38,272 bases of DNA, taken from a virus. Below, piece after piece: positions 6,988 to 38,272 of the stretch (its first letter is position 1; each line of letters begins with the position of its first letter). The DNA is taken from positions 1 to 38,272 of IMG/VR virus record IMGVR_UViG_3300009103_000076; one strand, written 5' to 3'. Under the pieces are notes generated by a model. The model was not told the DNA's origin, did not search any database, and saw nothing but the letters and a program-made list of their open reading frames with translations. The translations under genes and the position numbers were made by a program.

Positions 6988-7414
6988 CCGCGTCCCCCTC
7001 GCACCCCTCCAGCCAGCTCTCAGGCAAGCTCGGCCCTTGGCACCACGCAATGCCGTGCTTGGTCGCCCACTCCCCATAATTCGCGGGGAAGCGGGTGCCC
7101 TTGCCAATCCGGCTGCTGGCGTTTTGGAAGCACAAGCGGAAGTCAAACCGGGGGTGGGTCGCGATCAAAGCCAAAAACGCTTTGCGGTCTTCGCTCGGGA
7201 AGTAGCCTTTGGCCTCAATAAATATGCCGTTGGCTAGGCGGAAATCCGGCACGGCTAAGTGCGGCACGGCATACGGAAGCTCTACGGGTTCGTAAAGCCA
7301 ACCAACCCCGGCCAAGTCCAACGAGGCAGCAACCGTGGACTCAAACCGGGACCGGAAGCGTATGCCGTGCCGCACCGTTGCACGCCCGCGCTTAGAAATC
7401 GCTAGCACTCCCAT
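6980..7414 (-). CDS. Holliday-junction endonuclease I, T7 gp3-like
   Basis: A 144-residue protein (T7 gp3 is 149) starting at ATG 7414. The active-site pattern of endonuclease I is complete: Glu25 in FRSRFES, Asp57 in VPDFRLANG, Glu67 and Lys69 in IFIEAKG. The C-terminal NYGEWATKHGIAW stretch also matches the family. It resolves branched DNA during replication and packaging. It lies between SSB and primase-helicase exactly as in T7. Confidence 0.93.
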   Translation of the reverse strand: MGVLAISKRGRATVRHGIRFRSRFESTVAASLDLAGVGWLYEPVELPYAVPHLAVPDFRLANGIFIEAKGYFPSEDRKAFLALIATHPRFDFRLCFQNASSRIGKGTRFPANYGEWATKHGIAWCQGPSLPESWLEGCEGDAVG

Positions 7415-8009
7415 TGGCGCCGGGGGTGCTCCCCACCTCTTCCACGTGGTCCGCTACGTGACCGCTGGTGCCCATGAGCAGCTCGCGGGCTTGTTCTTCT
7501 ACGGCTTCGGGTTCGTCAGGCCCCCCGGCGCCATACTCGACGAGCTTGTGCACGCAGCACGCAACCGGCTGGAGCGTGACGCCAGCGCGGCCCCCTGCGG
7601 CCCAGCGGTACGGGGTAAACGCAACCTGTGCCTCAGTCCCGTTGCCCATCTGGACGCTGGCCGGGAGCGGTGAGCCGTCCGAATAGAACACAGCCGGGCG
7701 CCGGTCCCACGTCGTGCCGTCCCGCTTCTGCACGGTCGCACGCACCCGAAAACGAAAATCCCAAAACTCCCGGCCTTGCTCGTCCACCTCAACGGTCACG
7801 GCCGGGGTGGGGTCGAAGGTGCACCCGTTCTGCTTCGCGGCTTCCTCGCGCCAGCCGTCAATGGCGGTGACAAACGGCAGCGCGTCTTCCTCGTCGTAGA
7901 CTCGCAGCGTCGTCTCATACTTCGGCTGGTCGTCGCCCTTGAAGCTGTGCGGGACCAGCAGCCGCGGAAACCGCAGCAGCCCCACCGGGCTCTTGAACAT
8001 CTCACCCAT
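7392..8009 (-). CDS. Single-stranded DNA-binding protein, T7 gp2.5-like
   Basis: A 205-residue protein from the ATG at 8009, which lies 5 bases before the end of the upstream stop; the longer frame to 8162 overlaps the upstream gene and is ignored. An OB-like beta-rich core has KSPVGLLRFPRLLVPHSF, KYETTLRVYD and EFWDFRFRVRA strands. The protein ends in an acidic linker and a terminal SDF, and a terminal phenylalanine is the hallmark by which gp2.5 contacts the polymerase and helicase. It also resembles DUF2815-type phage SSBs. Position one of the T7-like replication series supports the role. Confidence 0.78.
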   Translation of the reverse strand: MGEMFKSPVGLLRFPRLLVPHSFKGDDQPKYETTLRVYDEEDALPFVTAIDGWREEAAKQNGCTFDPTPAVTVEVDEQGREFWDFRFRVRATVQKRDGTTWDRRPAVFYSDGSPLPASVQMGNGTEAQVAFTPYRWAAGGRAGVTLQPVACCVHKLVEYGAGGPDEPEAVEEQARELLMGTSGHVADHVEEVGSTPGANGSASDF

Positions 8010-8580
8010 CGGTCTTGCCTCCCTGCGCCCACTCTGGGCGCGCTTTGTACGTCGGGGGGTTGGCCCCGCGGTCCATCTGGATTGCACCAAGCAACTCAAA
8101 GCACCCCAGCGCAAGGCTGGTGGCTTGGGCACGGCCCCGGAGCTGCTCGCGGAGCTGGTCAAACGTCCAAACCGTTTCAGGGTTGCGCTTGAGCAGCGCG
8201 GAAAGCCGCAGCGGCAGCGCTAGAAACCGCTCGCTAGGGAGCAGCCCCCGGACGGCAAGAGCCCCGGCAGCCCCAAGCTCGGCCGCCAGGTCAAGAGCGG
8301 CGCCAGGGTCAGGGCGCACCGTCAGCGCCCCGAGCTGCTCCCGCGTGACGGGGACCTCGCGCTGCTTGCGGGTGGTCAGCTCGCCCCGAGCCGTGAGCAG
8401 CTCCCAGCGCATTGTCTGCGTGGAGTGTCCGCGCTCGTTTTCCGTGCAAGCCACCCAAGCGGTGACCACGCAGTCAACCCGCTCGGCTTCGCTCTCCCAC
8501 GTCAAGCGCTTGCTGATCCGGTGCAACGCTTCAAACAACTGAACACCCCCAAGCCCGATGTCTCGCACGTCTTCAGGCAT
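8002..8580 (-). CDS. Early operon protein of unknown function
   Basis: A 192-residue protein starting at ATG 8580, which overlaps the stop of the small zinc-ribbon gene as TGATG. The same frame is open to 8946, but this upstream part overlaps other genes and lacks protein-like character. Residues about 15-75 are a mixed strand region (HRISKRLTWESEAERVDCVVTAWVACTEN), followed by Ala/Leu-rich helices and a C-terminal WTFDQLREQLRGRAQATSLALGCFE segment resembling a winged helix. A DNA-binding role is possible. It is co-transcribed directly before the SSB gene. Confidence 0.6.
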   Translation of the reverse strand: MPEDVRDIGLGGVQLFEALHRISKRLTWESEAERVDCVVTAWVACTENERGHSTQTMRWELLTARGELTTRKQREVPVTREQLGALTVRPDPGAALDLAAELGAAGALAVRGLLPSERFLALPLRLSALLKRNPETVWTFDQLREQLRGRAQATSLALGCFELLGAIQMDRGANPPTYKARPEWAQGGKTDG

Positions 8581-20161: not shown

Positions 20162-20587
20162 ATGGCAACCATCAAAGGCATGGGCACCGCGTTCAAGATA
20201 GGCGACGGCACAAGCCCCACCGAAACCTTCACGGCTATTTCGGGCATCAAGTCCATTGGCATTCCTGGCTTGAGCGCTGACGTGGCAGACACCACGACGC
20301 TGGCCAGCACGAGCAACTACGAGGAAGCGCTGAGCACTGTGCTGCGCACGGGTGACCTGACCCTCTCGCTTTCGTGGGACCCCGACGACACCGAGCACCA
20401 GGGCTTCCTCACGGACTACGCCAGCGGCGCGGTCAAGAGCTATCAGATTGTCTTCACCGACACGACGCCGACCACGTTTCAGTTTTCGAGCATCGTCACG
20501 GGCGTGAGCATCTCGATTGAGACGGGCAGCGAGGTCACTGCCGAAGTGACGCTGAAGAACACGGGCGTGCCTAACTTCGCAGCGTAG
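20162..20587 (+). CDS. Major tail tube protein, copy 1
   Basis: A 141-residue beta-rich protein from ATG 20162. It carries LSADVADTTTLASTSNYEEALSTVLRTGDLTLSLSWDPDD (residues about 38-78), the core shared with the next two genes, and ends in an EVTAEVTLKNTGVPNF strand. The place between tail terminator and tail chaperones is that of the tail tube gene. Its composition matches the genome, so it is the best candidate for the main tube subunit. Confidence 0.85.
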   Translation: MATIKGMGTAFKIGDGTSPTETFTAISGIKSIGIPGLSADVADTTTLASTSNYEEALSTVLRTGDLTLSLSWDPDDTEHQGFLTDYASGAVKSYQIVFTDTTPTTFQFSSIVTGVSISIETGSEVTAEVTLKNTGVPNFAA

Positions 20588-20596
20588 AGGTAGGAC

Positions 20597-21013
20597 ATGG
20601 GCGCACTAACGAGCCTTGGCACAACGATAAGGGTTGGCGGCTTTGAGGTAGGACAGGTAACTGCCATTCAAGCAGTCAACCTTTCTGCGGACGTAGCCGA
20701 CGTGACAACGTTAGCCAGCGCATCGAATTACGAAGAAGCAGCGTCTACCGTTCTTCGGTCTGGGGAGCTAGTTGTTTCCGTTGCGTGGGACCCGGACCTT
20801 ACAACGCACTCCAATAGTATCTTCAGCGGAGCTATCGGAGAATGGCGAACGCAAGAGAATAAGAGCGTAAACATCACTTTTGCAAACGCCAATTCAAGTG
20901 TGTGGCAAATCTGGGGCTACGTCACCGGCATAGCCATTACAGCCGAGACCACTGACGTGTTGCGTGCTGACTTTACGTTTAAGACCACGGGCGCCGGAAC
21001 GTTTACGAACTAA
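20597..21013 (+). CDS. Tail tube paralogue, copy 2, compositionally atypical
   Basis: A 138-residue protein from ATG 20597, nine bases after copy 1. It keeps the shared core LSADVADVTTLASASNYEEAASTVLRSGEL and the WDPD motif, and the final ADFTFKTTGAGTF strand. Sampled lines of this gene are about 47-52% GC, well below its neighbours, with codons such as TTA, GTA, ACA and AGA that the rest of the genome avoids, and it has no GAGCWGCTC site. The protein fits the family while the DNA looks foreign. A recent arrival from a lower-GC relative is the simplest reading. Confidence 0.82.
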   Translation: MGALTSLGTTIRVGGFEVGQVTAIQAVNLSADVADVTTLASASNYEEAASTVLRSGELVVSVAWDPDLTTHSNSIFSGAIGEWRTQENKSVNITFANANSSVWQIWGYVTGIAITAETTDVLRADFTFKTTGAGTFTN

Positions 21014-21031
21014 CACGCGGAGGGATTGCCC

Positions 21032-21445
21032 GTGGGTGCGTTGAATAGCGCGGGGACTATCCTGCGGCTACAGAACACGACAGTGGGTCAGGTGGTGGGC
21101 ATTTCCGCAGTTAACCTCAGCGCTGACCTTGCCGACGTGACCAGCCTTGATAGCGCGAGCAACTACGAGCACGTGCTTGGCAACGTGTTGCGGAGTGGTG
21201 AGGTGACGTTCTCAGTTATCTGGGACCCGGACAACGTGAGCCACGGTTCGGGTGGCAACGGTTTCATTGGGCGCTGGGAAGAGCAGAGCACCCCGGTGTT
21301 GACGGTGATATTCCCAAACGATGACCAGAGCGTGTGGCAGATAGACGGCATCGTGAGCGGCGTTTCAATCACCGCCGAATCGGCCGACGTTGTACGGGCT
21401 GAGGTAACCGTGAAGACTACGGGTGTCGGCACTTTTACCCAATAA
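21032..21445 (+). CDS. Tail tube paralogue, copy 3
   Basis: A 137-residue protein from GTG 21032, seven bases after GGAGGG; a TTG at 21026 is too close to that site. It starts MGALNSAGTILRL like copy 2 (MGALTSLGTTIRV) and shares LSADLADVTSLDSASNYEHVLGNVLRSGEV and WDPD. The core is more diverged (NYEHVLGN). It may form part of a mixed tube, a tube-tip ring or an alternative subunit. Confidence 0.82.
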   Translation: MGALNSAGTILRLQNTTVGQVVGISAVNLSADLADVTSLDSASNYEHVLGNVLRSGEVTFSVIWDPDNVSHGSGGNGFIGRWEEQSTPVLTVIFPNDDQSVWQIDGIVSGVSITAESADVVRAEVTVKTTGVGTFTQ

Positions 21446-25286: not shown

Positions 25287-25712
25287 ATGCAGCCGCCCCC
25301 GGAGTGGTGCGCCGGTTACGTGGGCACCCCATACGTGCCGAAAGGTTTGGAGCTTGAGAGCGGGGTGGATTGTTGGGGGCTGGTGTACGTCGTGCTGCGG
25401 CGTGAGTTTGGGCTAGCGGTTCCTGACTACAAAGACCTCTACGCGCAAGAGGCAGCCAACACGTCAGTCAGTGACTTAGTGCGTGGGCCGTCTTGGGTGG
25501 AGGTCCCCCTGGCCGAGCGTCAGCCGGGTGACGTGCTTTGGTTCCGCTCGCTGCGCGGGGTCGCCCACGTGGGGGTCGTGGTGTCCCGTGACTTTTTCCT
25601 GCACTGCAACATCGGCACGGCCGCGGTAGTGGCTCGCGTAGATTTGCCTTTCTGGGCTGCGCGGCTGCTCGGTGTGTACCGCTTCGCAGGGGGGCAGCTC
25701 GCAGATGGCTGA
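25287..25712 (+). CDS. NlpC/P60 peptidase, tail-tip hydrolase (gpK-like)
   Basis: A 141-residue protein from ATG 25287. The papain-like NlpC/P60 site is visible: Cys29 in SGVDCWGLVYVV, His94 in GVAHVGVVVS, and a polar third residue nearby (His106 region). Lambda gpK has this domain C-terminally; here it stands alone without the Mov34 part. It probably trims tail proteins or opens peptidoglycan at entry. Confidence 0.87.
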   Translation: MQPPPEWCAGYVGTPYVPKGLELESGVDCWGLVYVVLRREFGLAVPDYKDLYAQEAANTSVSDLVRGPSWVEVPLAERQPGDVLWFRSLRGVAHVGVVVSRDFFLHCNIGTAAVVARVDLPFWAARLLGVYRFAGGQLADG

Positions 25713-28700
25713 GCAGAGCAGCTCGCTGAGCGTTGCCTTTGGCTCCCCGCTCGATGAAACGTGGCACCTTGAGCTTCCGTTTGTCGAGGGTGAGACCTTG
25801 GTGGACACGCTCGCCCGCGTAGTGGACGAAGCCGACGACCGCCGCGGGCGCCCCGTAGATATCCACCTAGACAGTCTCAGTGTCAGCCTGAACGGAACAC
25901 CGTTGGAGGGCGACCTGCGCCAAGCGGCTGCCGTACCCGCGGGCGCGTTTGTCTCGGTTTGCACACTTCCGCAGATAAGCGGCATCGCTGGGTTTCTTGC
26001 CCCGCTGCTTTTTGGAGGCACCGCGCTTGGTAGTCTCGGCTGGGTCGCGTGGGGTTTTGTTTACCTAATCAGCACGCTGATTGTGGTGGGTGGTCTAGTT
26101 GGCCTCAACCTGGCGCTGGGCGAGCTGCTCACCGACGACCTTGACGAAAGCAGCTCGGGCAGCCGCGCCCGCTTGCTCACGGGTGGCCGCAACCGCGTGG
26201 ACCCGTACGCCCCCATTCCGAAAGTCTATGGGACGTGGCGCTACTTCCCCCCGATGGCCGCGCGCCCGTACACCGAGACCAGCAGCCGCGCGCAGCATCT
26301 ACGGCAAGCCGTGCTGTGGGGCTACGGCCCGCTCACGTTGACTGACGTGCGCATCGGCAACACCGCGCTCACGGACTTTGACTCAGTTGACGTGACGCAC
26401 GAGACCATTGCCACCACCCCGCAACGGTTGGCGCACTACCCTGGCGACGTGACCGAAGTGCTCCCCAACGTCGTACTCAAATCAGACTTTCAGGGGGTCA
26501 ACGTAGGCGAAACGGGAAACGAGGCGATTCGCTCCACCAGCGTTCCCACGCGTGAGTTTCACGTTGACCTGCTCTTTCCGGCGGGCACGTTTCGGATCAA
26601 CGCCAGTGGCAAGGAAAGAGCCGCGGCTTTCACGCTGCGCGTTTGGTACCGGGAGCAGGGAACAAGCACGTGGTCACTGGCGCACATTTACGATGTCACC
26701 GAGATAAACAAGGACGCGTATTTCGTTAGCTTCCACACGTTTGACCGCCCGCTAGCCATCTATGAAGTCAGGGTAACCCGCACCGATGACTTGCCCTCAC
26801 AGGGGGCGAGCCGATACCCCACCAACCGCGGCGGCAACGGCTCGCACGTAAGCGCTCGCGTGGACGATGTGCAGTGGATATCGCTCAAGACCTACGCGGA
26901 CACGGTGCCGGTGCAAGAGCCGGGCGTGGAGGTTTCGAGCTTCCGCATACAAGCCACAGACCAGCTCAACGGGGTGGTGGACCGGCTCAACGGGCTGGTC
27001 ACTTCTAAGCTGCGGTCAATCAGCAGCGGCACGGTGTCCGGCACCTACACAAACAGCGCAAACCCTGCGCTTGTCGCGCTCGACATCTTGACCGGGACCG
27101 CCAACCCAAAGCCCCACGCGTTGAGTGACCTTGACTTGGTGGCGTTTGAGGGGTTCCAAGACTTTTGCGCCACCGAACAGCTAGAGTTCCACCACGTCTT
27201 TGACTACACCAACGAAAACGTTTTTGACGCGGCGCAACAGGCGTGCCGCGCTGGGCGTGGTTCTTTGGTTATCCGTGGCGGCAAAATATCGGTCACGTGG
27301 GACCGATCCCTGACCACGCCCACGCAGCTCTTTACTCGGCGCAACATTACGAGTTATCGCGAAAGCAAGGTCTACGCGGAGCCGCTTGACGCGGTGCGGG
27401 TGAGCTACCGGAACAGCGCCGCCAACTACCAGCCCGATGAAACGATTGTGTACAACGTGGGCGAGAGCGCGGGCACCGCCACCAACATTGCGAAGCTACA
27501 GCTACGCGGCCCCACCACCGCGTCAGGGGTTTGGCGGCTTGCCTATTACGAGCTGCTAGCCGCGCGCTACCGGGCCACCACCATCTCGCTGGGCGTTGAC
27601 CTTGACGTGCTTGCGTGTACGCGGGGCGATTTGATCCGGGTGCAAGAGCCTCACGGCTTCGCTGCCCGCATCACGAGCGTGACCACGGACGGCAGCAGCA
27701 ACATCACCACGATGACGCTTGACGAGCCGTTTGACTTTGAGGCGGCCACCACTTACGTGGCAGAAACCCGCACGGCCGCGGGCACGTTTGTGGACACCAC
27801 GCTGAGCAACCCCGGCGCGACCACCACCGCGGTGCTCACCCCGAGCAGCCCGCTGACGCCGGGAGCGGTTGCGGTGGGGGACTTGGTTGCGGTGGGTGTG
27901 CAGTCCACGAGCGAGACCCGTGACTTGATTGTTCTGGCAATTGCATACGGGGAAGACCTCACGGCCACGCTTGAATGCGTGGACTACGCCCCTGAGATAT
28001 TCACGCAGCTTGCAAGCGGGACCGAGAACAGCGACACCACCCCCACCCGCTCCCCGTTTGACTTCTACAACGACGAGCCCCCGCCCCCGACCATCCACCG
28101 GGTCAACCGGCTGCGGGTGCTCGGAGCGGACGGGGCGACGCGCATGGGGCTGCGGGTTTTTGTCTCCCCCGGCACGCCCACCACCGAGCTGCCCGCTGTG
28201 TCTTCCCAATACGCGCTTCAATACCGCTCGGTCCCTAGCGGGGGGACGGCAGGGGAGTGGATAAGCGTGCCCGCGGTGGAAGCGCGCAGCGGTCAAATTA
28301 CGGTCCCTGACTTTGGGATTGCGGGCGGCTTTGACGTGCGCGTCTTTGCGATTTCGGCCTATGACGTAATCAGCGAGCCCACCACCAGCACCGGCCACAA
28401 CGCTATCGGCGACCTGGCGACCCCCACCGGGCTGGGGATGACGGTGGACTTTGCCAGCTCAACGCTCGGGCCGGTGTCGCGTGCTCTTTTCTCGTGGGAT
28501 GACGTCAACGACCGCATCGCCGTGGGCTGGCGCATCACCATTGCCGTGGACTCCGAGACCAACGTGGTGGTGGACGAAGTGACCTATTCCCCCGCGTACA
28601 CGTACACCACGGCAGACGTGGGCGAGCTGTTCGTCACGGTGGAGGCGGTGGGCTTCCACGGTGAGGTCAGCGCTGCGCTTGAGCAAACGTTCACCTACTC

Positions 28701-30447
28701 CCCGCTGCTGAGTATCCAGCCGCTGCGCCCGCACGGGCTTGAGGTGTTCGGCACGGATAAGGTGGGCCAGGGCAATGATGTGACGTTTACCACCGCAGAC
28801 GTGACGGTGCAGTGGCGGCCCAGCGGGGCGGTGCGGCTTGCCCCGGACTTTGAGGGTGCCGGGCTTGAGCGAGGCAACCCGCGTGACCCGCTGCTGCGTG
28901 ACTACGTGGTTGAGGTCATCAGTGACGCGGGTGAGGTGGTGCGCACGGAATACCTTGAGACGCACTCCTACGCGTACACCAAAGCCAAAAACATCGAAGA
29001 CCACGGGGGCACCCGGCCAGACCGCTCGCCCACGTTGCGCGTGCGCATGAGAGACGTGGAGGGAAACTTAAGCGGCCCGGCCACCATCACGCCCACCAAC
29101 GTGGCGCCGCCCGCTCCCACCTCGGTGACGTACACGCGGGAAGAGCAGAGGGTGGTGGCGTCAATCGCGTTGCCCACTGACCTCCCTGACCTTGAGGGGG
29201 TGCTGGTGTGGGGGAGCAGCTCGGACGCCACCGTGCCGACGACCAGCGCCACGCTGCTCTATGACGGCCCGGCACAGTCCCCGTTCATGTTTGAGCTGCC
29301 CGCGGGCACTGGCACCATCTACCTGCGCGCTGCGTTCTTTGATGAATTTGGCAAGGAAGCCGCCACGCTCAACACCACCGGGGTGGCAACGGTAACCACG
29401 AGCCCCATCAGCGTGACGCTCGGGGCGGGCTCAGTGGGCACGCTGGAGCTGGCCGCCAACGCGGCTTCGATCCTCTATCAAGCCAACGTCACGGACCAAA
29501 GCCTGTTCACGACGAGCACCGCTGAGAACACTTGGCAAACCGTGGTCACCGTGACCAGCGCGGTGATTAGCGGGGACAACGGTGCGCAGACGCCGGTACA
29601 CGTGGAGGGGTTCCTGCTGGGCCGCGTGCTGGACGTGTGGGACCACGGGCTCAACTCCGGGCTCCACTTTATGAGCGCGGGCGGTCTTCCGGTCTTTGAG
29701 TACCGAATTGTAAAAGACCTCGGGCTCGGGACTGAGGAAGTCATATTCCCCGCGAGCGGCACCGAGACGAAACAAACCATCACCACGCTCGGCTACGTGG
29801 TGGGGGGCACCCCTAGCGCCAGCTTGTTGATGGACGCGGGCACGTACACGTTCACGCTGCAAGCCCGGTGGCGCTTTGACTTCTACAACGAGGGCACCGC
29901 CTACTTTGACACCACGGACTCCGGGGGCACGACGTACATCACAGGCATCAAAGGCGTGGGGACTAAATGGTCTGACTGGCTGCCCCGCGTTATTGAAATG
30001 TCATTTCCCCACAATGCCGCGCAGAGTGGCAGCACGGGAGACTGGGGCACGCAAGCAGAAGGGGGGATTATTGCGGAGCTGCGTATTCCCTCGGCCGATT
30101 ATGGTGGCTACCCGGACTCCGGTGTAGCGGGAGCCACTGCCAGAACAAACGGGTGGGTTGACTTGGTAGCGGTCAATCAGGCGCAGAGCGCTGGGCTGGG
30201 GAGCGCTAGCCCTGCGGTGCAGCTCGACCCGGCTAGCCCCGATACGTTCATACGCTTCTATAGCAACCAATTCCCCAACAGCTTCCCCATCCTCTCGGGA
30301 GCGAGCAACCCCACCACGTCACCGGGCGCCGCCTATGAAATCCGGTTTACCCATAATTTCCTCGGGGCGTGGGAGCAATTCAAAGACGCAAAGGTGTTGG
30401 TTGATGTGGAAGAGGCGGTGCTGCAAGTCACGGAGCGGCGAGCGTGA
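25705..30447 (+). CDS. Tail tip / host specificity protein, gpI-gpJ-like fusion
   Basis: A 1580-residue protein from ATG 25705, overlapping the peptidase gene by 8 bases. Residues about 1-95 are beta-rich with DIHLDSLSVSLNGTPLEGDLRQ, like a ubiquitin-like gpI domain. Two hydrophobic segments follow (about 98-145). Then a gpJ-type central tail hub with YAPIPKVYGTWRYFPPM and LRQAVLWGYGPLTLTDVRIG, and fibronectin-like beta domains with repeated PAPTSVTYTREEQRVVASI segments towards the C-terminus. Lambda encodes I and J separately. The C-terminal part should contact the receptor. Confidence 0.88.
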   Translation: MAEQSSSLSVAFGSPLDETWHLELPFVEGETLVDTLARVVDEADDRRGRPVDIHLDSLSVSLNGTPLEGDLRQAAAVPAGAFVSVCTLPQISGIAGFLAPLLFGGTALGSLGWVAWGFVYLISTLIVVGGLVGLNLALGELLTDDLDESSSGSRARLLTGGRNRVDPYAPIPKVYGTWRYFPPMAARPYTETSSRAQHLRQAVLWGYGPLTLTDVRIGNTALTDFDSVDVTHETIATTPQRLAHYPGDVTEVLPNVVLKSDFQGVNVGETGNEAIRSTSVPTREFHVDLLFPAGTFRINASGKERAAAFTLRVWYREQGTSTWSLAHIYDVTEINKDAYFVSFHTFDRPLAIYEVRVTRTDDLPSQGASRYPTNRGGNGSHVSARVDDVQWISLKTYADTVPVQEPGVEVSSFRIQATDQLNGVVDRLNGLVTSKLRSISSGTVSGTYTNSANPALVALDILTGTANPKPHALSDLDLVAFEGFQDFCATEQLEFHHVFDYTNENVFDAAQQACRAGRGSLVIRGGKISVTWDRSLTTPTQLFTRRNITSYRESKVYAEPLDAVRVSYRNSAANYQPDETIVYNVGESAGTATNIAKLQLRGPTTASGVWRLAYYELLAARYRATTISLGVDLDVLACTRGDLIRVQEPHGFAARITSVTTDGSSNITTMTLDEPFDFEAATTYVAETRTAAGTFVDTTLSNPGATTTAVLTPSSPLTPGAVAVGDLVAVGVQSTSETRDLIVLAIAYGEDLTATLECVDYAPEIFTQLASGTENSDTTPTRSPFDFYNDEPPPPTIHRVNRLRVLGADGATRMGLRVFVSPGTPTTELPAVSSQYALQYRSVPSGGTAGEWISVPAVEARSGQITVPDFGIAGGFDVRVFAISAYDVISEPTTSTGHNAIGDLATPTGLGMTVDFASSTLGPVSRALFSWDDVNDRIAVGWRITIAVDSETNVVVDEVTYSPAYTYTTADVGELFVTVEAVGFHGEVSAALEQTFTYSPLLSIQPLRPHGLEVFGTDKVGQGNDVTFTTADVTVQWRPSGAVRLAPDFEGAGLERGNPRDPLLRDYVVEVISDAGEVVRTEYLETHSYAYTKAKNIEDHGGTRPDRSPTLRVRMRDVEGNLSGPATITPTNVAPPAPTSVTYTREEQRVVASIALPTDLPDLEGVLVWGSSSDATVPTTSATLLYDGPAQSPFMFELPAGTGTIYLRAAFFDEFGKEAATLNTTGVATVTTSPISVTLGAGSVGTLELAANAASILYQANVTDQSLFTTSTAENTWQTVVTVTSAVISGDNGAQTPVHVEGFLLGRVLDVWDHGLNSGLHFMSAGGLPVFEYRIVKDLGLGTEEVIFPASGTETKQTITTLGYVVGGTPSASLLMDAGTYTFTLQARWRFDFYNEGTAYFDTTDSGGTTYITGIKGVGTKWSDWLPRVIEMSFPHNAAQSGSTGDWGTQAEGGIIAELRIPSADYGGYPDSGVAGATARTNGWVDLVAVNQAQSAGLGSASPAVQLDPASPDTFIRFYSNQFPNSFPILSGASNPTTSPGAAYEIRFTHNFLGAWEQFKDAKVLVDVEEAVLQVTERRA

Positions 30448-30920
30448 GCTATCAGGTCTGGGGCTTGGTGAACACTGACGGCACCGTTGCCAGCACGATG
30501 ATGACTCCGCAGGACATGCACGCGGTGGACCCTGGCAACGGTCAGCACTGGCAGCCCATGCCGCGCAACGCTCGCAGCCGTAAAAAGTGGCTGTGGGTTG
30601 GCGAGCTGAGCCCAACCGGCTGGGAGCAACGCCACCACGGGCGCGTCACGGTCGATGACTACCGGCTGGAGCCAGACGGGGAGAGCTTCGCCACGGTGAT
30701 GGTGGTTATTGACGGCACCGAGCGGCTCACTGCGTGCGCGCTAGAGATCAACGGGGAGCCGGTAACCGTGGACTCTGAGACCCCGCTGGAAGTGGGCCGC
30801 ACGACCGAGAGCGGTAGCTACCGCATCAAGCTGGTGGACCCGCGCATATACGGCACCCCCTCCGAGCTGCTCCGCGAAGTGGTGGTGATGCCGTCAGAGG
30901 TAACCCATGCCGAGATTTGA
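30444..30920 (+). CDS. Tail-associated beta-rich protein, unknown
   Basis: A 158-residue protein from GTG 30444 (GTGA overlap). It has an N-terminal VWGLVNTDGTVASTMMTPQDMHAVDPGNGQHWQPMP segment and a C-terminal carbohydrate-binding-like beta region (LTACALEINGEPVTVDSETPLEVG). Directly after the J-like gene, it may be a fibre or hub accessory. No family recognised. Confidence 0.6.
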   Translation: MSYQVWGLVNTDGTVASTMMTPQDMHAVDPGNGQHWQPMPRNARSRKKWLWVGELSPTGWEQRHHGRVTVDDYRLEPDGESFATVMVVIDGTERLTACALEINGEPVTVDSETPLEVGRTTESGSYRIKLVDPRIYGTPSELLREVVVMPSEVTHAEI

Positions 30921-31218
30921 CAAGCCCCCGGCGCCCGTCGTCGCGAGCGCGGCCACCGTGACCCCCGAAGCGGCAGCGCGCCGCGCTCGTCGGCAAGCGG
31001 TGGCGGCTGGCCCTGGCCCCGAGTCCGCGGCCGAGATGCTGTGCGTGTTGCAAGACACCACCGTGGAGCTGCTCAAGCAGACGCAAGCGGGCACGGACCT
31101 CTTCCGCGAAGTGCTGGCCGAGCTGCAACTACTGAGAGAGAAAACGCAGGCAGCGATTGACGCGGCTGAGGTCAACACCGAGCGGGTGGTGCAAGCCGTG
31201 CGGGAGCTTCCGCGGTGA
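30907..31218 (+). CDS. Coiled-coil tail-region protein, unknown
   Basis: A 103-residue protein from ATG 30907. The first 45 residues are Ala/Pro/Arg-rich and the rest (EMLCVLQDTTVELLKQTQAGTDLFREVLAELQLLREKTQAAIDAAEV) is a continuous coiled coil. No membrane span. Likely a connector or a chaperone of the fibre region; unassigned. Confidence 0.55.
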   Translation: MPRFDKPPAPVVASAATVTPEAAARRARRQAVAAGPGPESAAEMLCVLQDTTVELLKQTQAGTDLFREVLAELQLLREKTQAAIDAAEVNTERVVQAVRELPR

Positions 31219-31289
31219 CCGTCGAGCTGCTGCGGTGGGTTGCCGCGTTTGCGCTTGCCGTCTCGCTGGCTCAGTGGGTGGCGCGTTGA
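31215..31289 (+). CDS. 24-residue single-span membrane microprotein
   Basis: A tiny frame from GTG 31215, overlapping the previous stop as GTGA, whose TGA overlaps the next ATG as TGATG. The product MTVELLRWVAAFALAVSLAQ (then WVAR) is one hydrophobic helix with charged ends. Double coupling supports translation. It directly precedes the ferritin-like/acyltransferase gene, so it may anchor or regulate that product, or simply keep ribosomes coupled. Confidence 0.5.
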   Translation: MTVELLRWVAAFALAVSLAQWVAR

Positions 31290-32629
31290 TGGGACGGCTG
31301 AGGGGGTGGGTGCAAGACTGGGAAGTCCGGGAGCTGGTGCGGCGGAATTTGCAGCACGCTCCCACGCACCTCACGGGGGACGACCGTATAGCGGGGCGCT
31401 GGCTGTTTTCGCTGCTGGCCCAGATGGAGGGCATCGCCGTGGAAGCGGCACGCCGCGGGGACGGTGTGCGGGGGCAGCTCCGCGACGAGCTAAGCCACCA
31501 GCAAACCTTTGCGCACATTGCCGAGCAGCTCGGAGCTACCGAAGCCCAACGCAGCCCGGAAATTGACGAGCTGGTTGAGTACCTCGAAGGGCTCGGGGGC
31601 GCGGAGAGCCTGGCCGCTCTCAATATCGTTGCGGAGCACTGGCTGGCTGGGATTTTCGAGCGGGTGGCGCGTTGGCCGCTCGCGTCGTGGCTGTTCACGC
31701 TTATTGGCGCGGAAGAGCACCGCCACGTTGCGCACGCTCTGAAAGCAGCTCGCCCCAGCTCCACCCACGCGCAGGCAGTGGTGCGGGTACTTGAAGAGCG
31801 GCTGGCCCAGGTCGCCCACGCGCCGGGGTTTCTGCTCCCGCTCGCGCACTTTGGTGGCGGGGAAGAGGTGGCGCAGATAGGACTCCGCAACGTGCACGAC
31901 CACCGCACGGCTTGCGCTCGGCTCGGCGTCGTCCCCGGCCCTGCTGTGCGAGACCTTGAAACGATGGCGCGGGGCTATCTCGCGGGGCTGCCCGAGGAGC
32001 CCGAGCTGCTGCGGCTCAACCGCTGGGAGCGCAGCCGCTTTGACATTTGGACGACCCCCGCGCCAATGGTCAGCTTTGTGGACGCGTGGGGCGTCTTCCC
32101 TGACTCCCCGGCAGACCTTGAGGCTCGGGTGGTGCTCGCGGTAGGCAAGGCGCTGGCGGCCCACCCGGAGCTTCGGGTCACAATGCGCGGCCGAAACCTC
32201 TACCGGCCGAAGACCGTGAGGGTGGGGGTGCGCCGGATGCGGACGCGCAACGAGCTGGTCACGCTTCACGTGCGCGAGCCTCAGCGGCTTACGCGGGGGG
32301 AGGTGGAGGCACGGCTGGAGCGACACGCGGCGCGGGCTCGGAGCCGTCCATACCACGCCGTGCGCTCAGTCCCGTGCGAGCTGCGCCCGTTGGTCCCCCC
32401 CACACGCACCCCGGTGGTGGTCACCAATTGCAGTGAGTTGGGCTGTGACTTTGCGCTGGCTCCCCTGGCCGAGCTGGAGGGCACACCCATCAGCGTGGCG
32501 GTGGGGAAGGCGCACCTATCTGGCCGCGTCACGCTCGGTATAACCCAAGACCACCGAAGCGGGGACGGTCGAGCGCTGGGGCTGCTTACCCGAGAAATCC
32601 GTGAGAGGTTGGAGGCGCAAGCCGCATGA
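31289..32629 (+). CDS. Ferritin-like diiron domain fused to E2-type CoA acyltransferase domain
   Basis: A 446-residue protein from ATG 31289 (TGATG overlap). Residues about 1-175 form a helical bundle with a diiron pattern: Glu47, ExxH (Glu67, His70), Glu116 and ExxH (Glu143, His146). Residues about 260-442 resemble the catalytic domain of 2-oxoacid dehydrogenase E2: VVLAVGKALAAHPELRVTM, a VGVRRMRTRNELVTLHV strand pair, PVVVTNCSELGCDFALAPL, and DHRSGDG (His422, Asp426), the E2/CAT active-site motif. No lipoyl domain is seen. Acceptor and CoA substrate are unknown. It lies between tail hub and fibre genes in the same operon. I know of no phage protein with this pairing. Confidence 0.7.
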   Translation: MGRLRGWVQDWEVRELVRRNLQHAPTHLTGDDRIAGRWLFSLLAQMEGIAVEAARRGDGVRGQLRDELSHQQTFAHIAEQLGATEAQRSPEIDELVEYLEGLGGAESLAALNIVAEHWLAGIFERVARWPLASWLFTLIGAEEHRHVAHALKAARPSSTHAQAVVRVLEERLAQVAHAPGFLLPLAHFGGGEEVAQIGLRNVHDHRTACARLGVVPGPAVRDLETMARGYLAGLPEEPELLRLNRWERSRFDIWTTPAPMVSFVDAWGVFPDSPADLEARVVLAVGKALAAHPELRVTMRGRNLYRPKTVRVGVRRMRTRNELVTLHVREPQRLTRGEVEARLERHAARARSRPYHAVRSVPCELRPLVPPTRTPVVVTNCSELGCDFALAPLAELEGTPISVAVGKAHLSGRVTLGITQDHRSGDGRALGLLTREIRERLEAQAA

Positions 32630-33528
32630 GTCAGTTAAGCAATTACGTGGCCGTCACGAGCGGCAGCGCCGTGGTTTATGCGGTGTGGGATGTGGTCATC
32701 AGCAACGCTAACGGCACGTTCACGGTAGGGGAGTCCGTGACGTTCAGCGGCTCGGGAGCTGCGGCCACCGTCGTTGCGTGGCTCCCCGGCTCCAGCACCA
32801 AGCTCCGCGCGTACGTGACGAGCACGGCAATGCCCGCAGCCGGGAACACCGCAACGGGTGGGAGCAGCTCGGCCACGGGCGTCGTTTCGAGCTTCACCGC
32901 TTCTAGCTCTTGGGCAACGGACGTGGATGCGGGGGACGTGTTCACCATCTCCGAGAGCGGGGTGGCGTATCTGGTGGGGAGTGTAGACACGCACGCAAAG
33001 CTCACCCTTTCCGCCAACTACGCAGCCGCCACCAACACGTACCAGCAGGGGTACATCTCGACGAGCTTTAGCCCCAGCAAATCTATTGCCTACCCCGAGG
33101 TTGGGGACAAAGACACCGAGACGGTGACGAAGCAGGGAACGCTCACTGTTGACACGGCGCTGGCGGCGGTGCCCTCGCTCAGCACTGAGCAGGTTTGGAC
33201 GGCAAGCCAGCACCCCGAGGCCAACGAAATCACCCATAGCGCGGGCGTGCTGACGATTGACCTGGCGGTCTCTACGTTTCACGTGGTGCAGCTTTCGGGT
33301 GTGGCGGTCGCGTCCATTGCATTCACGAACAAGCCAACAACGGGAGCGCTCGCCACCGTCGTCATCAACCAAGACGCAAGCACGGGCGTGGCGGTCAGCT
33401 CGTGGAGCGGTTTGGATTTCGGGGACGCTGGGACGCCCACCGGGTACACGTCACCGGGGGACGCGCTCGTGCTGAGCTTAGTGGTCACGCCAGCGGGCAC
33501 GGTCTTGGCTTCCGCGGGGGCGTTCTAG
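32626..33528 (+). CDS. Tail fibre-like protein
   Basis: A 300-residue protein from ATG 32626 (ATGA overlap). It is Ser/Thr/Ala/Gly-rich and beta-predicted throughout, with no cysteine, e.g. TFTVGESVTFSGSGAAATVV, SFSPSKSIAYPEVGDKDTETV and VVINQDASTGVAVSSW. Composition and position after the hub genes indicate a fibre or fibre-tip spacer. The C-terminal VLSLVVTPAGTVLASAGAF is a typical trimeric fibre end. Confidence 0.7.
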   Translation: MSQLSNYVAVTSGSAVVYAVWDVVISNANGTFTVGESVTFSGSGAAATVVAWLPGSSTKLRAYVTSTAMPAAGNTATGGSSSATGVVSSFTASSSWATDVDAGDVFTISESGVAYLVGSVDTHAKLTLSANYAAATNTYQQGYISTSFSPSKSIAYPEVGDKDTETVTKQGTLTVDTALAAVPSLSTEQVWTASQHPEANEITHSAGVLTIDLAVSTFHVVQLSGVAVASIAFTNKPTTGALATVVINQDASTGVAVSSWSGLDFGDAGTPTGYTSPGDALVLSLVVTPAGTVLASAGAF

Positions 33529-33529
33529 T

Positions 33530-34330
33530 TTGGCCCCGGTTGCACAGTTTGGGCTCGGCCAGACGCTCGCCACGGGTGGGACCGATACGGGACCGCAGCA
33601 TGTCCGCCTAACAGGTTCGCAGAGCAGCGTCAACCTGCGAACGGCAGCCGGGAATCCGACGGGCGCGGTGGATGTGATCTTCTACGTGGAGACGCATATC
33701 GGCACGGGTCTGTTTGGGTTCCAATACGCTATTCGGACTGGCACCGGGTGGCACGCCGACGCAACGGTGACGCTCGTGCTAAATAAGCCGGATTGCCTTG
33801 TCTGCGGGGGGTGGGCTCTCGGGGGCAGAGACAAAGTGGCGATTAACGAAACGCTCACCTACTGGCACAACGGGGGCGGGGGCGGGGGGGCTGGGGGTGC
33901 TGGCTTCGGTGGTAACTCCGCGTATGCCCCGGGGCACCGCTCCCACGCAGACCCAACGCACGCGACCCAGCCCACAATGGAGCGTTACGCTGGGGCCGGG
34001 GGGTATCGTCAGCACAGCTCGGTGGGGTGGCCCGGCCGCACGGCGACCGCTGGGGCGTATGGTCGTCACGCGCTTTGGCTAGACTGTGACCTAACAGTGT
34101 TCAACTATGCTGGCGTCATCGCGGGGGCGGGAGGCGGCGGGGGTGGCGGCGGTCAGACTTCCAACACCCCCGGGCGTGGCGGAAACGGGGGCGAGCTGGG
34201 CCAGGCGGGCAGTGCGGGAGTGGGCACTGGGGCCGGAAGCGGGGGGGCGGCCGGTACGCTGGTGAAGCTGAACGGGCACACAATCACGTGGGCTGTGCGG
34301 GGTGAGGCGTATGGGGCAGAAATTGCCTAG
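33530..34330 (+). CDS. Glycine-rich adhesin-like receptor-binding protein
   Basis: A 266-residue protein from TTG 33530. After a beta N-domain (about 1-105) it has glycine runs: WHNGGGGGGAGGAGFGGN (about 112-129), AGVIAGAGGGGGGGG near 195-209 and RGGNGGELGQAGSAGVGTGAG after. Such runs recall the polyglycine-II sandwich of T4-like gp38 adhesins that bind outer-membrane proteins. The residues between the runs (HRSHADPTH, YRQHSSVGWPG) would be the variable loops. A few Cys (CLVCGG, about 86-89) are odd for this class. Confidence 0.65.
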   Translation: MAPVAQFGLGQTLATGGTDTGPQHVRLTGSQSSVNLRTAAGNPTGAVDVIFYVETHIGTGLFGFQYAIRTGTGWHADATVTLVLNKPDCLVCGGWALGGRDKVAINETLTYWHNGGGGGGAGGAGFGGNSAYAPGHRSHADPTHATQPTMERYAGAGGYRQHSSVGWPGRTATAGAYGRHALWLDCDLTVFNYAGVIAGAGGGGGGGGQTSNTPGRGGNGGELGQAGSAGVGTGAGSGGAAGTLVKLNGHTITWAVRGEAYGAEIA

Positions 34331-34646
34331 CAGCAGCGAACAAGACGCCCGGCGCGCCGAAGCTCTCGCGGAGCTGCGCAGTTATCACCTAGAGGTCGTT
34401 GACCGGCTTGCGCGGATTGAGACGCACGCGCAGGGCTTCGTTGATCGGCTGGAAGAGCACACCGAGCAAGACGCCGCAAACTTTCACCGGCTTGACTCGG
34501 CGCTGGACGGTGTTGCGATTGACGTGGCGGTGGCAAAAGCGGTGGGGGGGAGAGAGGGGCGAAAGCGGGGGGCTTGGTGGGCCACAACCATCAGCGCCCT
34601 AGCGGTGGCCGTAGCCGAAGCCGCCAGGGCGCTGGGATGGCTTTAG
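34311..34646 (+). CDS. XhlA-like coiled-coil membrane protein, candidate holin accessory
   Basis: A 111-residue protein from ATG 34311 (a GTG at 34302 is also in frame), overlapping the adhesin gene by 20 bases. Residues about 10-70 are a charged coiled coil (DARRAEALAELRSYHLEVVDRLARIETHAQGFVDRLEEH); residues about 90-111 are one C-terminal membrane span (WWATTISALAVAVAEAARAL). This is the layout of XhlA-type haemolysin/holin accessories. It is the last gene of the rightward structural operon. Confidence 0.6.
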   Translation: MGQKLPSSSEQDARRAEALAELRSYHLEVVDRLARIETHAQGFVDRLEEHTEQDAANFHRLDSALDGVAIDVAVAKAVGGREGRKRGAWWATTISALAVAVAEAARALGWL

Positions 34647-34837
34647 CGCTTGCGCCTCGCTGAGCGTTTCCGCTCGGCTTCCAGCAGCTTGGTCAGGTAG
34701 TACGAGACCGTGCGGTCATCCTCAGCAGCTCGCTCAGTAACCCACGCGAGCAGCTCGGGCGCCAGGTGGACGGTGAGCTGCTGCTTTTTTGCAGCCCCCA
34801 GCGAGGGGCGCCCCGGTCTCTTTTTCTTTGCGGTCAC
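34643..34837 (-). CDS. Ribbon-helix-helix regulator
   Basis: A 64-residue basic protein from GTG 34837 (GTGA overlap with the upstream stop); a GTG at 34849 is a second choice. After a KKKRPGRPS tail, QLTVHLAPELLAWVTERAAEDDRTVSYYLTKLLEAE gives a CopG/Arc-type strand-helix-helix. Last gene of the accessory minus operon, converging with the structural operon by a four-base overlap. It may autoregulate that operon. Confidence 0.75.
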   Translation of the reverse strand: MTAKKKRPGRPSLGAAKKQQLTVHLAPELLAWVTERAAEDDRTVSYYLTKLLEAERKRSARRKR

Positions 34838-35193
34838 TCCTTCCCCCACTCAGCGAGCGCGGCCAGCGTGCCTAGGTAGCCGTGCGCTCGCCCCCGCTCC
34901 ACTCTATCGGCTTGCGCTTGCTTGGCCGCGGTGCTCTCGCACTCAAATACGTGGTAGCAGTGGAGATCGTGGGTGAGCCAGTCCCGCGCGGCTTCGGGGT
35001 CTTCCTCGCTGCGGTCTTCCTCACTGCACCAACGCTCGAAACGTCCACCGCTCGCGGCGGCTTCCTCGGTGCAGTAGCTCAACAGCTCGGTGCGGTTGCA
35101 GAACGTGTGAGCGCTGACTGGTCGCTGGTGCGGGACCATCACGAGCAGCACCGGCTCCGTGGGGTCAATAAAAAACGCGTTTCGATTCGCCAT
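34834..35193 (-). CDS. Accessory operon protein, unknown
   Basis: A 119-residue protein from ATG 35193, two bases after the previous stop; the frame extends to 35265 but that part overlaps the upstream gene. It contains FFIDPTEPVLLVMVPHQRPVSAHTF, an acidic EEDRSEEDPEAARDWLTHDLHCYHVFECE segment with two Cys and several His. No family recognised. Possibly a metal-binding or antagonist protein; unassigned. Confidence 0.5.
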   Translation of the reverse strand: MANRNAFFIDPTEPVLLVMVPHQRPVSAHTFCNRTELLSYCTEEAAASGGRFERWCSEEDRSEEDPEAARDWLTHDLHCYHVFECESTAAKQAQADRVERGRAHGYLGTLAALAEWGKE

Positions 35194-35195
35194 CG

Positions 35196-35471
35196 TTACG
35201 ACCTCTGCATGTCTTTGTGCGCCGCGACCACCGCCGCGCGGGTTTCCTCGCTCAACCTCTTCCACGCCCGGTCAAGCCGGTTGGTGCTGGCTTCGGTCCA
35301 CGTAGCCGGGTCGTAGTCGTTTGAGGGGCAGCCCCTCTCCTCGTCCGAGACCATCGCAGCCCACAGCGCTCGGGATACTTCCGCCGAAATCTCCCAAGTT
35401 TCCGCCACTGTGTCCAGGGTCGTAAATCGTGCCCACCGGGGGGCGCGCTTCGGTGCGGTCTTCGTCGTCAT
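35196..35471 (-). CDS. Small basic helical protein overlapping the TGT-like gene
   Basis: A 91-residue protein from ATG 35471. Its first 200 bases lie inside the 3' part of the TGT-like frame in another phase. Composition is ordinary protein-like (ETWEISAEVSRALWAAMVSDEERG, RLDRAWKRLSEETRAAVVAAHKDM), more so than the other frame at this place. No family recognised. Confidence 0.55.
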   Translation of the reverse strand: MTTKTAPKRAPRWARFTTLDTVAETWEISAEVSRALWAAMVSDEERGCPSNDYDPATWTEASTNRLDRAWKRLSEETRAAVVAAHKDMQRS

Positions 35472-36519
35472 TGTTCTCGGTTCCTTTCTCGTTGTTGTTG
35501 GTGGTGGTTTCGGTCTCGTTGCTCGCGGCCAGCGGCTCGCTGGTCTCGCTCAGCTCGTCCCCAAACAGGTCAGCCATCAGCGCGACGGCTTCCGCTTCGG
35601 CTTCGGCTTCGGCGGCGCGGCGCTTGGCCTCGAGGTGGGCCAGCACCCGCTCCAGCTCTTCCGAGTTGAAACGCATGAGCGGGGTCTTTGCCTGGCCGCT
35701 CGCGTCAGCGCAGATGACCTCTCGCACGTATTCGTCGGCGCCCGTGCCGCGGTAGCTCCACGCCACGAGTTGCAGCAGCTCGTCATCCGTGAGCGGCCCG
35801 AGCAGCAGCGCGGCATCCCCGTCCCCCAGCCGGTCGCTGCACTTCAACGAGCCGATGCGGCTTCGCAGTGCGCGGTACTCCGCGACCCACGTGGAAGAGT
35901 CAACGGTGGTGAGCCGGGTGTGGCCGCGCTTGAGCGCGTAGCGGGTCATCCCCAAGCCGTGAACGGCCACGCCGTAGCTCTCGCAGATGTTCAGCGCTTC
36001 GGTCAGCCACGCGTCAGGGCTCATGCCGTTCCCTTGGTCTTTGCTGATGGTGTTGCCGTTACGCGCGAAGCCGAGCGCCACGCGGTCAAAGCGCTGGCAG
36101 TAGTGGTGGAGCACTTCCCACGGCTCAACCCCGCCACCGTGGAACACCGGCACCACGTCCACGCCAGCGTTGAGCAGCTCGGCGGTGTTGTTCCACGTGG
36201 TTGTTAGGTCGCCAGCGATATCGTCAAGCGTGATGATTTGGTCAAACAGGTGCCCGTATTCAGCGGCAAACGCTGTGAACGCTTCCAGCTCAACCGTAAT
36301 GCCGCGGGTGAAAACCGTGAAGGCACCCGAGTCGAGAATGGCGGTGCTGTACTTCCCAGCCTCCAACCGCGGGAGCAGCTCGCGCTCCCACACGCCCGGC
36401 CGGTCCAGCACGTCCGCGAACGAAATCAGCACCGGGAAGCCCTCAGCCGCTTCGGCCAACAGCGCGGTGTTGAGCCCGGCCAGGTAGTTGAGGGGGGTGG
36501 GGTCGGTGGGGTTGGTCAT
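35272..36519 (-). CDS. TGT/DpdA-like transglycosylase, possible DNA 7-deazaguanine modification enzyme
   Basis: A 415-residue frame from ATG 36519 behind AAAGGAA. Residues about 25-215 fit a tRNA-guanine transglycosylase-like TIM barrel: ILDSGAFTVF (Asp63), FDQIITLDD, DVVPVFHGG, RVALGFARNG, VHGLGMTRYALKRGHTRL and TTVDSSTW (Asp207). This is the pattern of phage queuine-transferase/DpdA proteins, which exchange guanine in DNA. A poly-Glu/Asn tail (about 305-350) follows, and the last about 65 residues are read across the next gene in another phase and look unnatural. No preQ0/queC-E genes are near, so a base would have to come from the host. tRNA as substrate is not excluded. Confidence 0.62.
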   Translation of the reverse strand: MTNPTDPTPLNYLAGLNTALLAEAAEGFPVLISFADVLDRPGVWERELLPRLEAGKYSTAILDSGAFTVFTRGITVELEAFTAFAAEYGHLFDQIITLDDIAGDLTTTWNNTAELLNAGVDVVPVFHGGGVEPWEVLHHYCQRFDRVALGFARNGNTISKDQGNGMSPDAWLTEALNICESYGVAVHGLGMTRYALKRGHTRLTTVDSSTWVAEYRALRSRIGSLKCSDRLGDGDAALLLGPLTDDELLQLVAWSYRGTGADEYVREVICADASGQAKTPLMRFNSEELERVLAHLEAKRRAAEAEAEAEAVALMADLFGDELSETSEPLAASNETETTTNNNEKGTENNDDEDRTEARPPVGTIYDPGHSGGNLGDFGGSIPSAVGCDGLGRGEGLPLKRLRPGYVDRSQHQPA

Positions 36520-37065: not shown

Positions 37066-37653
37066 ATGAGCATCACGCTGCTGCCTGATTTCCTCACCGA
37101 AGCGGAAGCCCGCGCGCTGCTGGCGAGGATGCCCGCGCGGCCCCCGGCGCCGCTGTATGACCGCATTGCGGGGACGCTGGAGGGGCTCGGGCTGGGCTGG
37201 TGTGCGCGGGGGCCTCGGTCCCGCCAGAGCGTCCGCATTGAGTGCCAGCAGCACGGGCACCCCTGGCACTTCGACGGGTGCGCAGGCACGCCGTGGGAGC
37301 CAGCAGAAGCCCTCCAGGCCGCTCGTAGCTACAAACTCAAGCCGGGGGGGCATGACTGGGCGCGGCTCAGCTTTTCGCTGCTCCTGAGCCATCCTGCGAC
37401 GTTCACGGGGGGAGAGCTTGAGCTGCTCACGGAAGCGGGGGAGGTCGTGCGGGTGACCCCGAAGCTCCACCACCGCACCCTCGTGGTGTGGCCGAGCGGG
37501 CTCGTGGGTGGGGGGGCGCCAGCGCTTCACCGAGTCCACCCGCACCAAGCCGTGCCGGGCTCCGAGCTGCTCGGCTGGAGCCACAACAGCGAGGGGGCGA
37601 CGGTGCGGCAATTCGGCGGGGCTCGTTACGTGCTGGTGGGGTTCCTCGCGTGA
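37066..37653 (+). CDS. 2-oxoglutarate/Fe(II) dioxygenase
   Basis: A 195-residue protein from ATG 37066. It has the facial triad of 2OG oxygenases: HPWHFDG (His68, Asp70) and a distal His in ALHRVHPHQ (His155 or His158), plus Arg187 in RYVLVGFLA to bind 2OG, and the SFSLLLSHPATFTGGELEL strand pair of prolyl-hydroxylase-like members. Substrate unknown: protein, nucleic-acid base or nucleotide are all possible. It is the last gene before attP, a common place for accessory cargo. Confidence 0.82.
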   Translation: MSITLLPDFLTEAEARALLARMPARPPAPLYDRIAGTLEGLGLGWCARGPRSRQSVRIECQQHGHPWHFDGCAGTPWEPAEALQAARSYKLKPGGHDWARLSFSLLLSHPATFTGGELELLTEAGEVVRVTPKLHHRTLVVWPSGLVGGGAPALHRVHPHQAVPGSELLGWSHNSEGATVRQFGGARYVLVGFLA

Positions 37654-37864: not shown

Positions 37865-38272
37865 CTAGCGTTGCGCGGCTCGGCGCTGGCCCTGAACGGG
37901 GCCGAGGTGGGGGGTGGTGTGAGAAGTGGTGTGAGTTTTTGCGCCTCGACTCCCCCCAGCCGCGGCAACGCCCCGCTCAATCAGGTCGGCGGGCAGCTCC
38001 CCGTCAGCCAGCTCAGCCGGGCGGCTGTAGCTCTGGCCCTCGACCTGCGCCGCGTAATGCTTGGCGGTGGTCGCCACGTCCGCGTGCCCGAGCTGAGCTG
38101 AGATGTACCCGAGCTGCACCCCCGCGGTGAGAAGCTGGCTGGCAAAGGTATCCCGCAGGTCTTTGAGCGCTCGGTGCCCCACCCCAGCCCGCTCGCAGAT
38201 CCGCCGCCACTCCCGCGCTCGGAAGTTGTCCCCGTCCAGGCCGGGAAAAACCAGCGCCCCCGGCCCCGGCTG
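37865..38272 (-). CDS. int: Tyrosine integrase, C-terminal part (continues into 1025-1 across the joint)
   Basis: This is the 3' end of the gene described at 1-1025; 38154-38272 duplicates 1-119. It encodes Arg342, His365 and the nucleophile Tyr375 of the recombinase. A 62-residue C-terminal tail after the tyrosine, ending in Arg-rich QGQRRAAQR, is longer than usual. The stop lies 20 bases from the tRNA-derived attP core. Confidence 0.93.
   Translation of the reverse strand, partial: QPGPGALVFPGLDGDNFRAREWRRICERAGVGHRALKDLRDTFASQLLTAGVQLGYISAQLGHADVATTAKHYAAQVEGQSYSRPAELADGELPADLIERGVAAAGGSRGAKTHTTSHTTPHLGPVQGQRRAAQR
38154..38272. repeat. Right copy of 119-bp terminal direct repeat
   Basis: Identical to bases 1-119. 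Remove one copy to obtain a circle of 38153 bases. Confidence 0.95.

What the first reader, a model, noticed from the sequence alone, without database searches (positions are those of the whole stretch)
31289..32629. Phage protein joining a ferritin-like diiron bundle to an E2-type acyltransferase domain
The N-terminal half shows Glu, ExxH, Glu, ExxH spacing on four helices. The C-terminal half shows the E2/CAT fold pattern with DHRSGDG carrying the catalytic His and Asp. E2 domains normally belong to 2-oxoacid dehydrogenase complexes, with lipoyl domains that are absent here. The gene is translationally coupled inside the tail/fibre operon, so it could decorate a phage fibre or a host surface molecule by acylation linked to oxidation. 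I know no described phage system of this type.
Basis: partly seen in the sequence, partly recalled or inferred. Interest (0 to 1): 0.82.

Follow-up and report, generated by a model that had tools for sequence, protein, structure and literature searches.

The report
Orphan phage E2-like acyltransferase, helical N-terminus
A complete temperate-phage genome carries, inside its tail-fibre gene block, an orphan protein whose second half is an acyl-transferring enzyme of the kind that normally sits in pyruvate-type dehydrogenase complexes, and whose helical first half may, but is not shown to, bind two irons.

Summary
The gene is real: codon statistics favour its frame, and it overlaps its neighbours in the late tail/fibre operon of a circularly complete 38,153-bp temperate phage genome. 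The C-terminal half (about residues 236-446) belongs by profile to the catalytic domain of 2-oxoacid dehydrogenase E2 proteins (PF00198, E=5.8e-8, above the curated cut-off; profile-profile probability 92% over 150 columns; shuffles far lower). It keeps the E2 active-site residues Asp421, His422, Arg423, Asp426 and, by alignment, Thr379. No lipoyl or E3-binding domain was found. The N-terminal half is all-helical in low-confidence models and does contain Glu47, E67xxH70, Glu116, E143xxH146, but the diiron reading stays unproven: no Pfam or PDB sequence match, uninformative folds, only a weak excess over controls against one ferritin-like profile, and a 20-residue first Glu-ExxH spacing where two canonical examples have 30-33. 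No relative, and no second copy of the architecture, was found in phages, plasmids, IMG/VR or GTDB genomes, though those searches reach mainly close relatives. Most likely it is an acyl-CoA-dependent acyltransferase made late with the fibres, acting on a host surface glycan or lipid. Coupled oxidation-acylation is speculation.

The parts
31289..32629 (+). The gene: 446-aa two-part protein (P0001)
   Evidence: Open frame; codon statistics
31289..31993 (+). N-terminal helical half, residues 1-235; Glu47 (31427-31429), Glu67/His70 (31487-31498), Glu116 (31634-31636), Glu143/His146 (31715-31726) as candidate metal ligands
   Evidence: Helices in low-confidence AF2 models; motif positions; weak Ferritin_2 profile signal
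31994..32626 (+). C-terminal E2-type acyltransferase domain, residues 236-446; Thr379 (32423-32425) and D421-H422-R423...D426 (32549-32566) as active-site residues
   Evidence: PF00198 E=5.8e-8; own E2 profile; hhalign 92%; numbering
31215..31289 (+). 24-codon hydrophobic ORF (GTG start, MTVELLRWVAAFALAVSLAQWVAR); its stop overlaps the start of the gene (TGATG)
   Evidence: Sequence; that it is translated is inferred
25672..30447 (+). Lambda J-like central tail fibre, upstream in the operon
   Evidence: phrog_31 E=8.9e-70; PF13550
32626..33528 (+). Downstream gene overlapping by ATGA, fibre-like by position and composition
   Evidence: no family match
33530..34330 (+). Glycine-rich, fibre-tip-like gene
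   Evidence: no family match

Best explanation
The gene encodes a working acyltransferase of the E2/CAT superfamily that the phage makes late, together with its tail fibres. By analogy with E2 and CAT it would be a trimer in which His422 activates an acceptor thiol or hydroxyl and an acyl group passes between CoA and an acceptor. Lacking its own lipoyl arm it is not an ordinary dehydrogenase core, so it probably uses free acyl-CoA, with the helical N-half binding or presenting the acceptor. The most likely acceptor is a host surface glycan or lipid, or its cytoplasmic precursor, so that the cell or the new virions are altered at adsorption. Shown: coding gene, E2-family domain, retained active-site residues, no lipoyl or E3-binding domain detected, late-operon position in a complete phage genome. 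Inferred: activity, trimer, CoA use. Guess: the acceptor and the role of the N-half.
For: PF00198 over its curated cut-off; own E2 profile and hhalign alignment reaching through the DHR motif; single-sequence match to a canonical E2 (L109). SucB Asp374, His375 and Asp379, whose mutation leaves about 2-10% activity, and Thr323 and Arg376 (PMC5986005) align with Asp421, His422, Asp426, Thr379 and Arg423. No lipoyl domain. Late operon, no internal sigma-70-like promoter. Many prophages carry putative acetyltransferases thought to modify surface sugars (PMC13123978). A phage with a similar J carries an annotated acyltransferase gene after its fibre gene.
Against: No substrate evidence; no relatives whose conservation could show that the active site is under selection. 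The domain is very divergent (21% identity to SucB and AceF) and the first strands of the E2 fold are shortened. The surface-modification role rests on gene position and analogy.
Confidence: 0.4

Rival explanations
1. A metabolic enzyme: the phage E2-like domain changes host acyl-CoA or lipoyl-bound acyl pools, or interferes with host 2-oxoacid dehydrogenase complexes (for instance by using the host's lipoyl domains), during late infection.
For: The domain is E2-like rather than CAT-like in profile matches: PF00198 and no CAT family.
Against: No E1- or E3-binding domain; sits in the fibre operon rather than with early or metabolic genes.
Confidence: 0.2
2. A structural or assembly part of the tail: the trimeric E2/CAT fold is used as a trimer organiser for fibres, catalysis being secondary or lost.
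For: Lies between J and the fibre-like genes and is coupled to the next one by ATGA; E2 active sites lie at the interface of subunits within a trimer (PMC5986005).
Against: The catalytically important Asp, His and Asp are kept, which a structural role does not need.
Confidence: 0.15
3. A bifunctional enzyme: the N-half is a true ferritin-like diiron oxygenase that oxidises a substrate which the E2-type half acylates (or the reverse), decorating a fibre or a host surface molecule.
For: Two ExxH motifs 76 residues apart, within the range seen in rubrerythrin and Ferritin_2 proteins (62-99 in most); Ferritin_2 profile score above all controls.
Against: First Glu to ExxH distance 20 against 30-33 in canonical examples (sequences); no Pfam match; rubrerythrin profile negative; models too poor to place the ligands; hhalign probability only 9.5%.
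Confidence: 0.1

Closest known systems
Catalytic domain of 2-oxoacid dehydrogenase E2 acyltransferases (PF00198; E. coli SucB and AceF)
   Same: Profile match over most of the domain; DHRxxDG motif; Thr, Asp, His, Arg and Asp active-site positions
   Different: No lipoyl or E3-binding domains; fused to an unrelated helical half; about 21% identity; in a phage fibre operon
Stand-alone E2-like/CAT-like proteins of bacteria (e.g. L133-L136)
   Same: Short proteins with an E2/CAT-type C-terminal motif and no lipoyl domain
   Different: Motifs differ (e.g. LDDRxADG, VHHGLADG, IDHDIIDG) and they lack the helical half; relation beyond the fold not tested
Ferritin-like diiron proteins (Ferritin_2 PF13668, rubrerythrin PF02915)
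   Same: Two ExxH motifs on helices at a compatible distance; weak Ferritin_2 profile signal
   Different: No match over any cut-off; short first Glu-ExxH spacing; metal binding unknown
Prophage-encoded acetyltransferases reported in Klebsiella prophages (PMC13123978)
   Same: Putative acyl transfer by a temperate phage, possibly on surface sugars
   Different: Not compared in sequence here; this protein matches no PHROG

Membership tests
E2 catalytic domain (PF00198) | Sequence profile over the curated cut-off | tested here: met
   29.7 bits whole protein, 32.9 bits C-half, cut-off 23
E2 catalytic domain (PF00198) | DHRxxDG motif with catalytic His and Asp, and the active-site Thr/Ser | tested here: met
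   Asp421, His422, Arg423, Asp426; Thr379 by alignment
E2 catalytic domain (PF00198) | CAT-like fold and trimer | tested here: inconclusive
   Single-sequence model of the C-half below pLDDT 50
Full E2 component of a 2-oxoacid dehydrogenase complex | Lipoyl and peripheral-subunit-binding domains | tested here: not met
   No such Pfam hit in the protein at E<=1
Ferritin-like diiron proteins | E, ExxH, E, ExxH on four helices with canonical spacing | tested here: inconclusive
   Letters present; ExxH-ExxH distance 76 fits; first Glu-ExxH distance 20 is short
Ferritin-like diiron proteins | Match to a family profile over its cut-off | tested here: not met
   No Pfam hit of the N-half at E<=10; weak own-profile signal only
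Ferritin-like diiron proteins | Four-helix bundle with ligands meeting at a metal site | tested here: inconclusive
   N-half model pLDDT 49, pTM 0.43; no Foldseek hit at E<=0.001 in PDB or BFVD; coordinates are not returned, so distances could not be measured
Ferritin-like diiron proteins | Bound iron or manganese | not testable with these tools
   Needs purified protein

The most novel reading that the evidence does not exclude
A phage-encoded bifunctional enzyme in which a diiron oxygenase domain and an E2-type acyltransferase domain act in sequence to put an oxidised or acylated mark on the phage's own fibre or the host's receptor: a fusion that these searches found in no other organism.
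Probability: 0.08. Interest if true: 0.82.

Novelty: new variant of a known kind. Interest (0 to 1): 0.45.

Why it matters
An E2 catalytic domain freed from its dehydrogenase complex and lipoyl arm, placed in a phage fibre operon with its active-site residues kept, would extend a central-metabolism fold to phage-host surface chemistry. The active-site His gives a simple loss-of-function test. If the N-half also binds iron, it would be a new kind of coupled modification enzyme.

Tried and rejected
Searches with the protein, its N-half, its C-half and a C-half/E2 alignment in viral contigs, with the whole protein in genome contigs, and by tblastn in phages and plasmids: no relative. A DHR[ST]GDGR-type DNA pattern gave 66 viral stretches, none related. 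Phages found through the terminase and the DNA polymerase: none of 21 whole records has the protein. 398 genomes of one phylum, reached through a Bacillota MAG: only an ordinary E2 and stray matches. E2 genes in 'phage' records are mostly ordinary sucB/aceF/pdhC-like genes, many in very large or tiny records, probably host DNA. Defence-gene library: nothing. Fold searches of the poor models: nothing significant; ribonucleotide-reductase NrdF chains, which are diiron proteins, appear in the list but with TM about 0.2 and are not used as evidence. A strict buried-ligand test of my own was not passed by the real protein, and the looser one failed by 0.1 degree at a threshold I had set, so neither is used as support. 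My first ferritin-family set contained wrong-frame ORFs and was rebuilt. Coding on the opposite strand (long shadow ORFs 31129-31908 and 31490-32356) was rejected by codon statistics.

Full report
WHAT WAS CHECKED. Codon statistics trained on the phage's own structural genes are positive in this frame only, in both halves of the gene, and its position-specific G+C (0.77/0.50/0.78) resembles that of the neighbours. The window is a complete genome: its first and last 119 bases are identical and the tyrosine integrase runs across the join (C-terminal part by Pfam). So the gene lies in a genuine 38,153-bp temperate phage with HK97-type head genes, a tape measure, a lambda-J-like central fibre and T7-like replication genes.

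SURROUNDINGS. The order is J (25672-30447), a 158-aa gene (30444-30920), a 103-aa gene (30907-31218), a 24-codon hydrophobic ORF (31215-31289), the gene in question, and two fibre-like genes (32626-33528, 33530-34330), nearly all overlapping or abutting. No sigma-70-like promoter lies in 30300-34900. The gene is therefore expected to be made late with the tail (inference), unlike an independently expressed moron. In three phages with a similar J, the place after J holds fibre, spike or unknown genes; one of them has an annotated acyltransferase after its fibre gene.

C-TERMINAL HALF. Pfam PF00198 matches at E=5.8e-8, over the cut-off. An independent profile that I built from E. coli SucB and AceF and 26 further open frames scores 20.7 bits and matches the central and the DHR stretches. 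hhalign gives 92% probability over residues 280-443, score 48.3 against a best of 20.8 for 60 shuffles. A plain single-sequence search also finds a canonical lipoyl-bearing E2 (L109; E=2.7e-4). The SucB residues tested by mutation in PMC5986005 are Thr323, Asp374, His375, Arg376 and Asp379, of which Asp374, His375 and Asp379 matter most. In alignment these fall on Thr379, Asp421, His422, Arg423 and Asp426. This is what the sequence can show; activity was not tested.

N-TERMINAL HALF. Models from the single sequence are poor (pLDDT 38 for the whole, 49 for the N-half) but consistently helical. Against the diiron reading: no family hit, no PDB sequence hit, no significant fold hit, and a rubrerythrin profile that scores the domain within the controls. 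For it: the Ferritin_2 profile scores it 8.2 bits, above 1000 shuffles and 2269 natural open frames (maximum 5.8), aligning E67xxH70 with the family's ExxH and running to about Glu116; hhalign agrees weakly (9.5%, score 22.9 against a best shuffle of 17.6). The first Glu to ExxH distance is 20, against 30 in L143 and 33 in L170 (counted on the sequences printed). I treat the diiron reading as possible, not shown.

RELATIVES. None found in any collection that could be searched. The seeds of the contig scans are mostly exact 8-residue stretches, so they find close relatives only; the deeper genome search reached only one phylum, which is unlikely to hold the host: the J-like fibre, the T7-like polymerase and 60-68% G+C point to a Gram-negative host (inference). 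Absence of relatives is therefore a statement about these searches. The phage itself is isolated: J has no close IMG/VR relative and the terminase is at most about 49% identical to anything found.

MECHANISM. Given kept catalytic residues and no lipoyl arm, an acyl-CoA-dependent transferase is the simplest reading. Surface chemistry is favoured by the late fibre operon and by reports of putative acetyltransferases in many prophages (PMC13123978). Metabolic chemistry and a structural role remain open.

VERDICT. The finding is an orphan variant of a known enzyme fold in an unexpected place; the 'diiron plus acyltransferase' headline is not established.

DISCLOSURE. One search printed two conservatively altered copies of the protein that I had meant as a mismatch-tolerant search query. 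I then stopped; they were set aside and used in nothing. All reported searches use natural sequences.

Noticed in passing
1-119 and 38154-38272: Identical 119-base ends: the record is a complete, circularly closing genome of 38,153 bp, with the integrase gene split across the ends.
   Followed up: yes
35272-36519 (-): Gene related to phage queuine tRNA-ribosyltransferases (phrog_887, E=4.1e-26), a possible DpdA-like DNA-modification gene; no preQ0 pathway genes were looked for.
   Followed up: partly
37066-37653 (+): Protein with a sub-threshold 2OG-Fe(II) oxygenase match (PF13640, E=0.0018), next to the integrase.
   Followed up: no
31215-31289 (+): Possible 24-residue single-pass membrane peptide translated between two fibre-operon genes, overlapping both neighbours.
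   Followed up: partly
3242-8162 (-): T7-like replication block (DNA polymerase A, T7-type primase-helicase, Gp2.5-like SSB) in a temperate lambda/HK97-type siphophage: a mosaic genome.
   Followed up: no
20162-21445 (+): Three consecutive, visibly similar genes of about 140 aa, probably tandem tail-tube or major-tail paralogues (translations).
   Followed up: no
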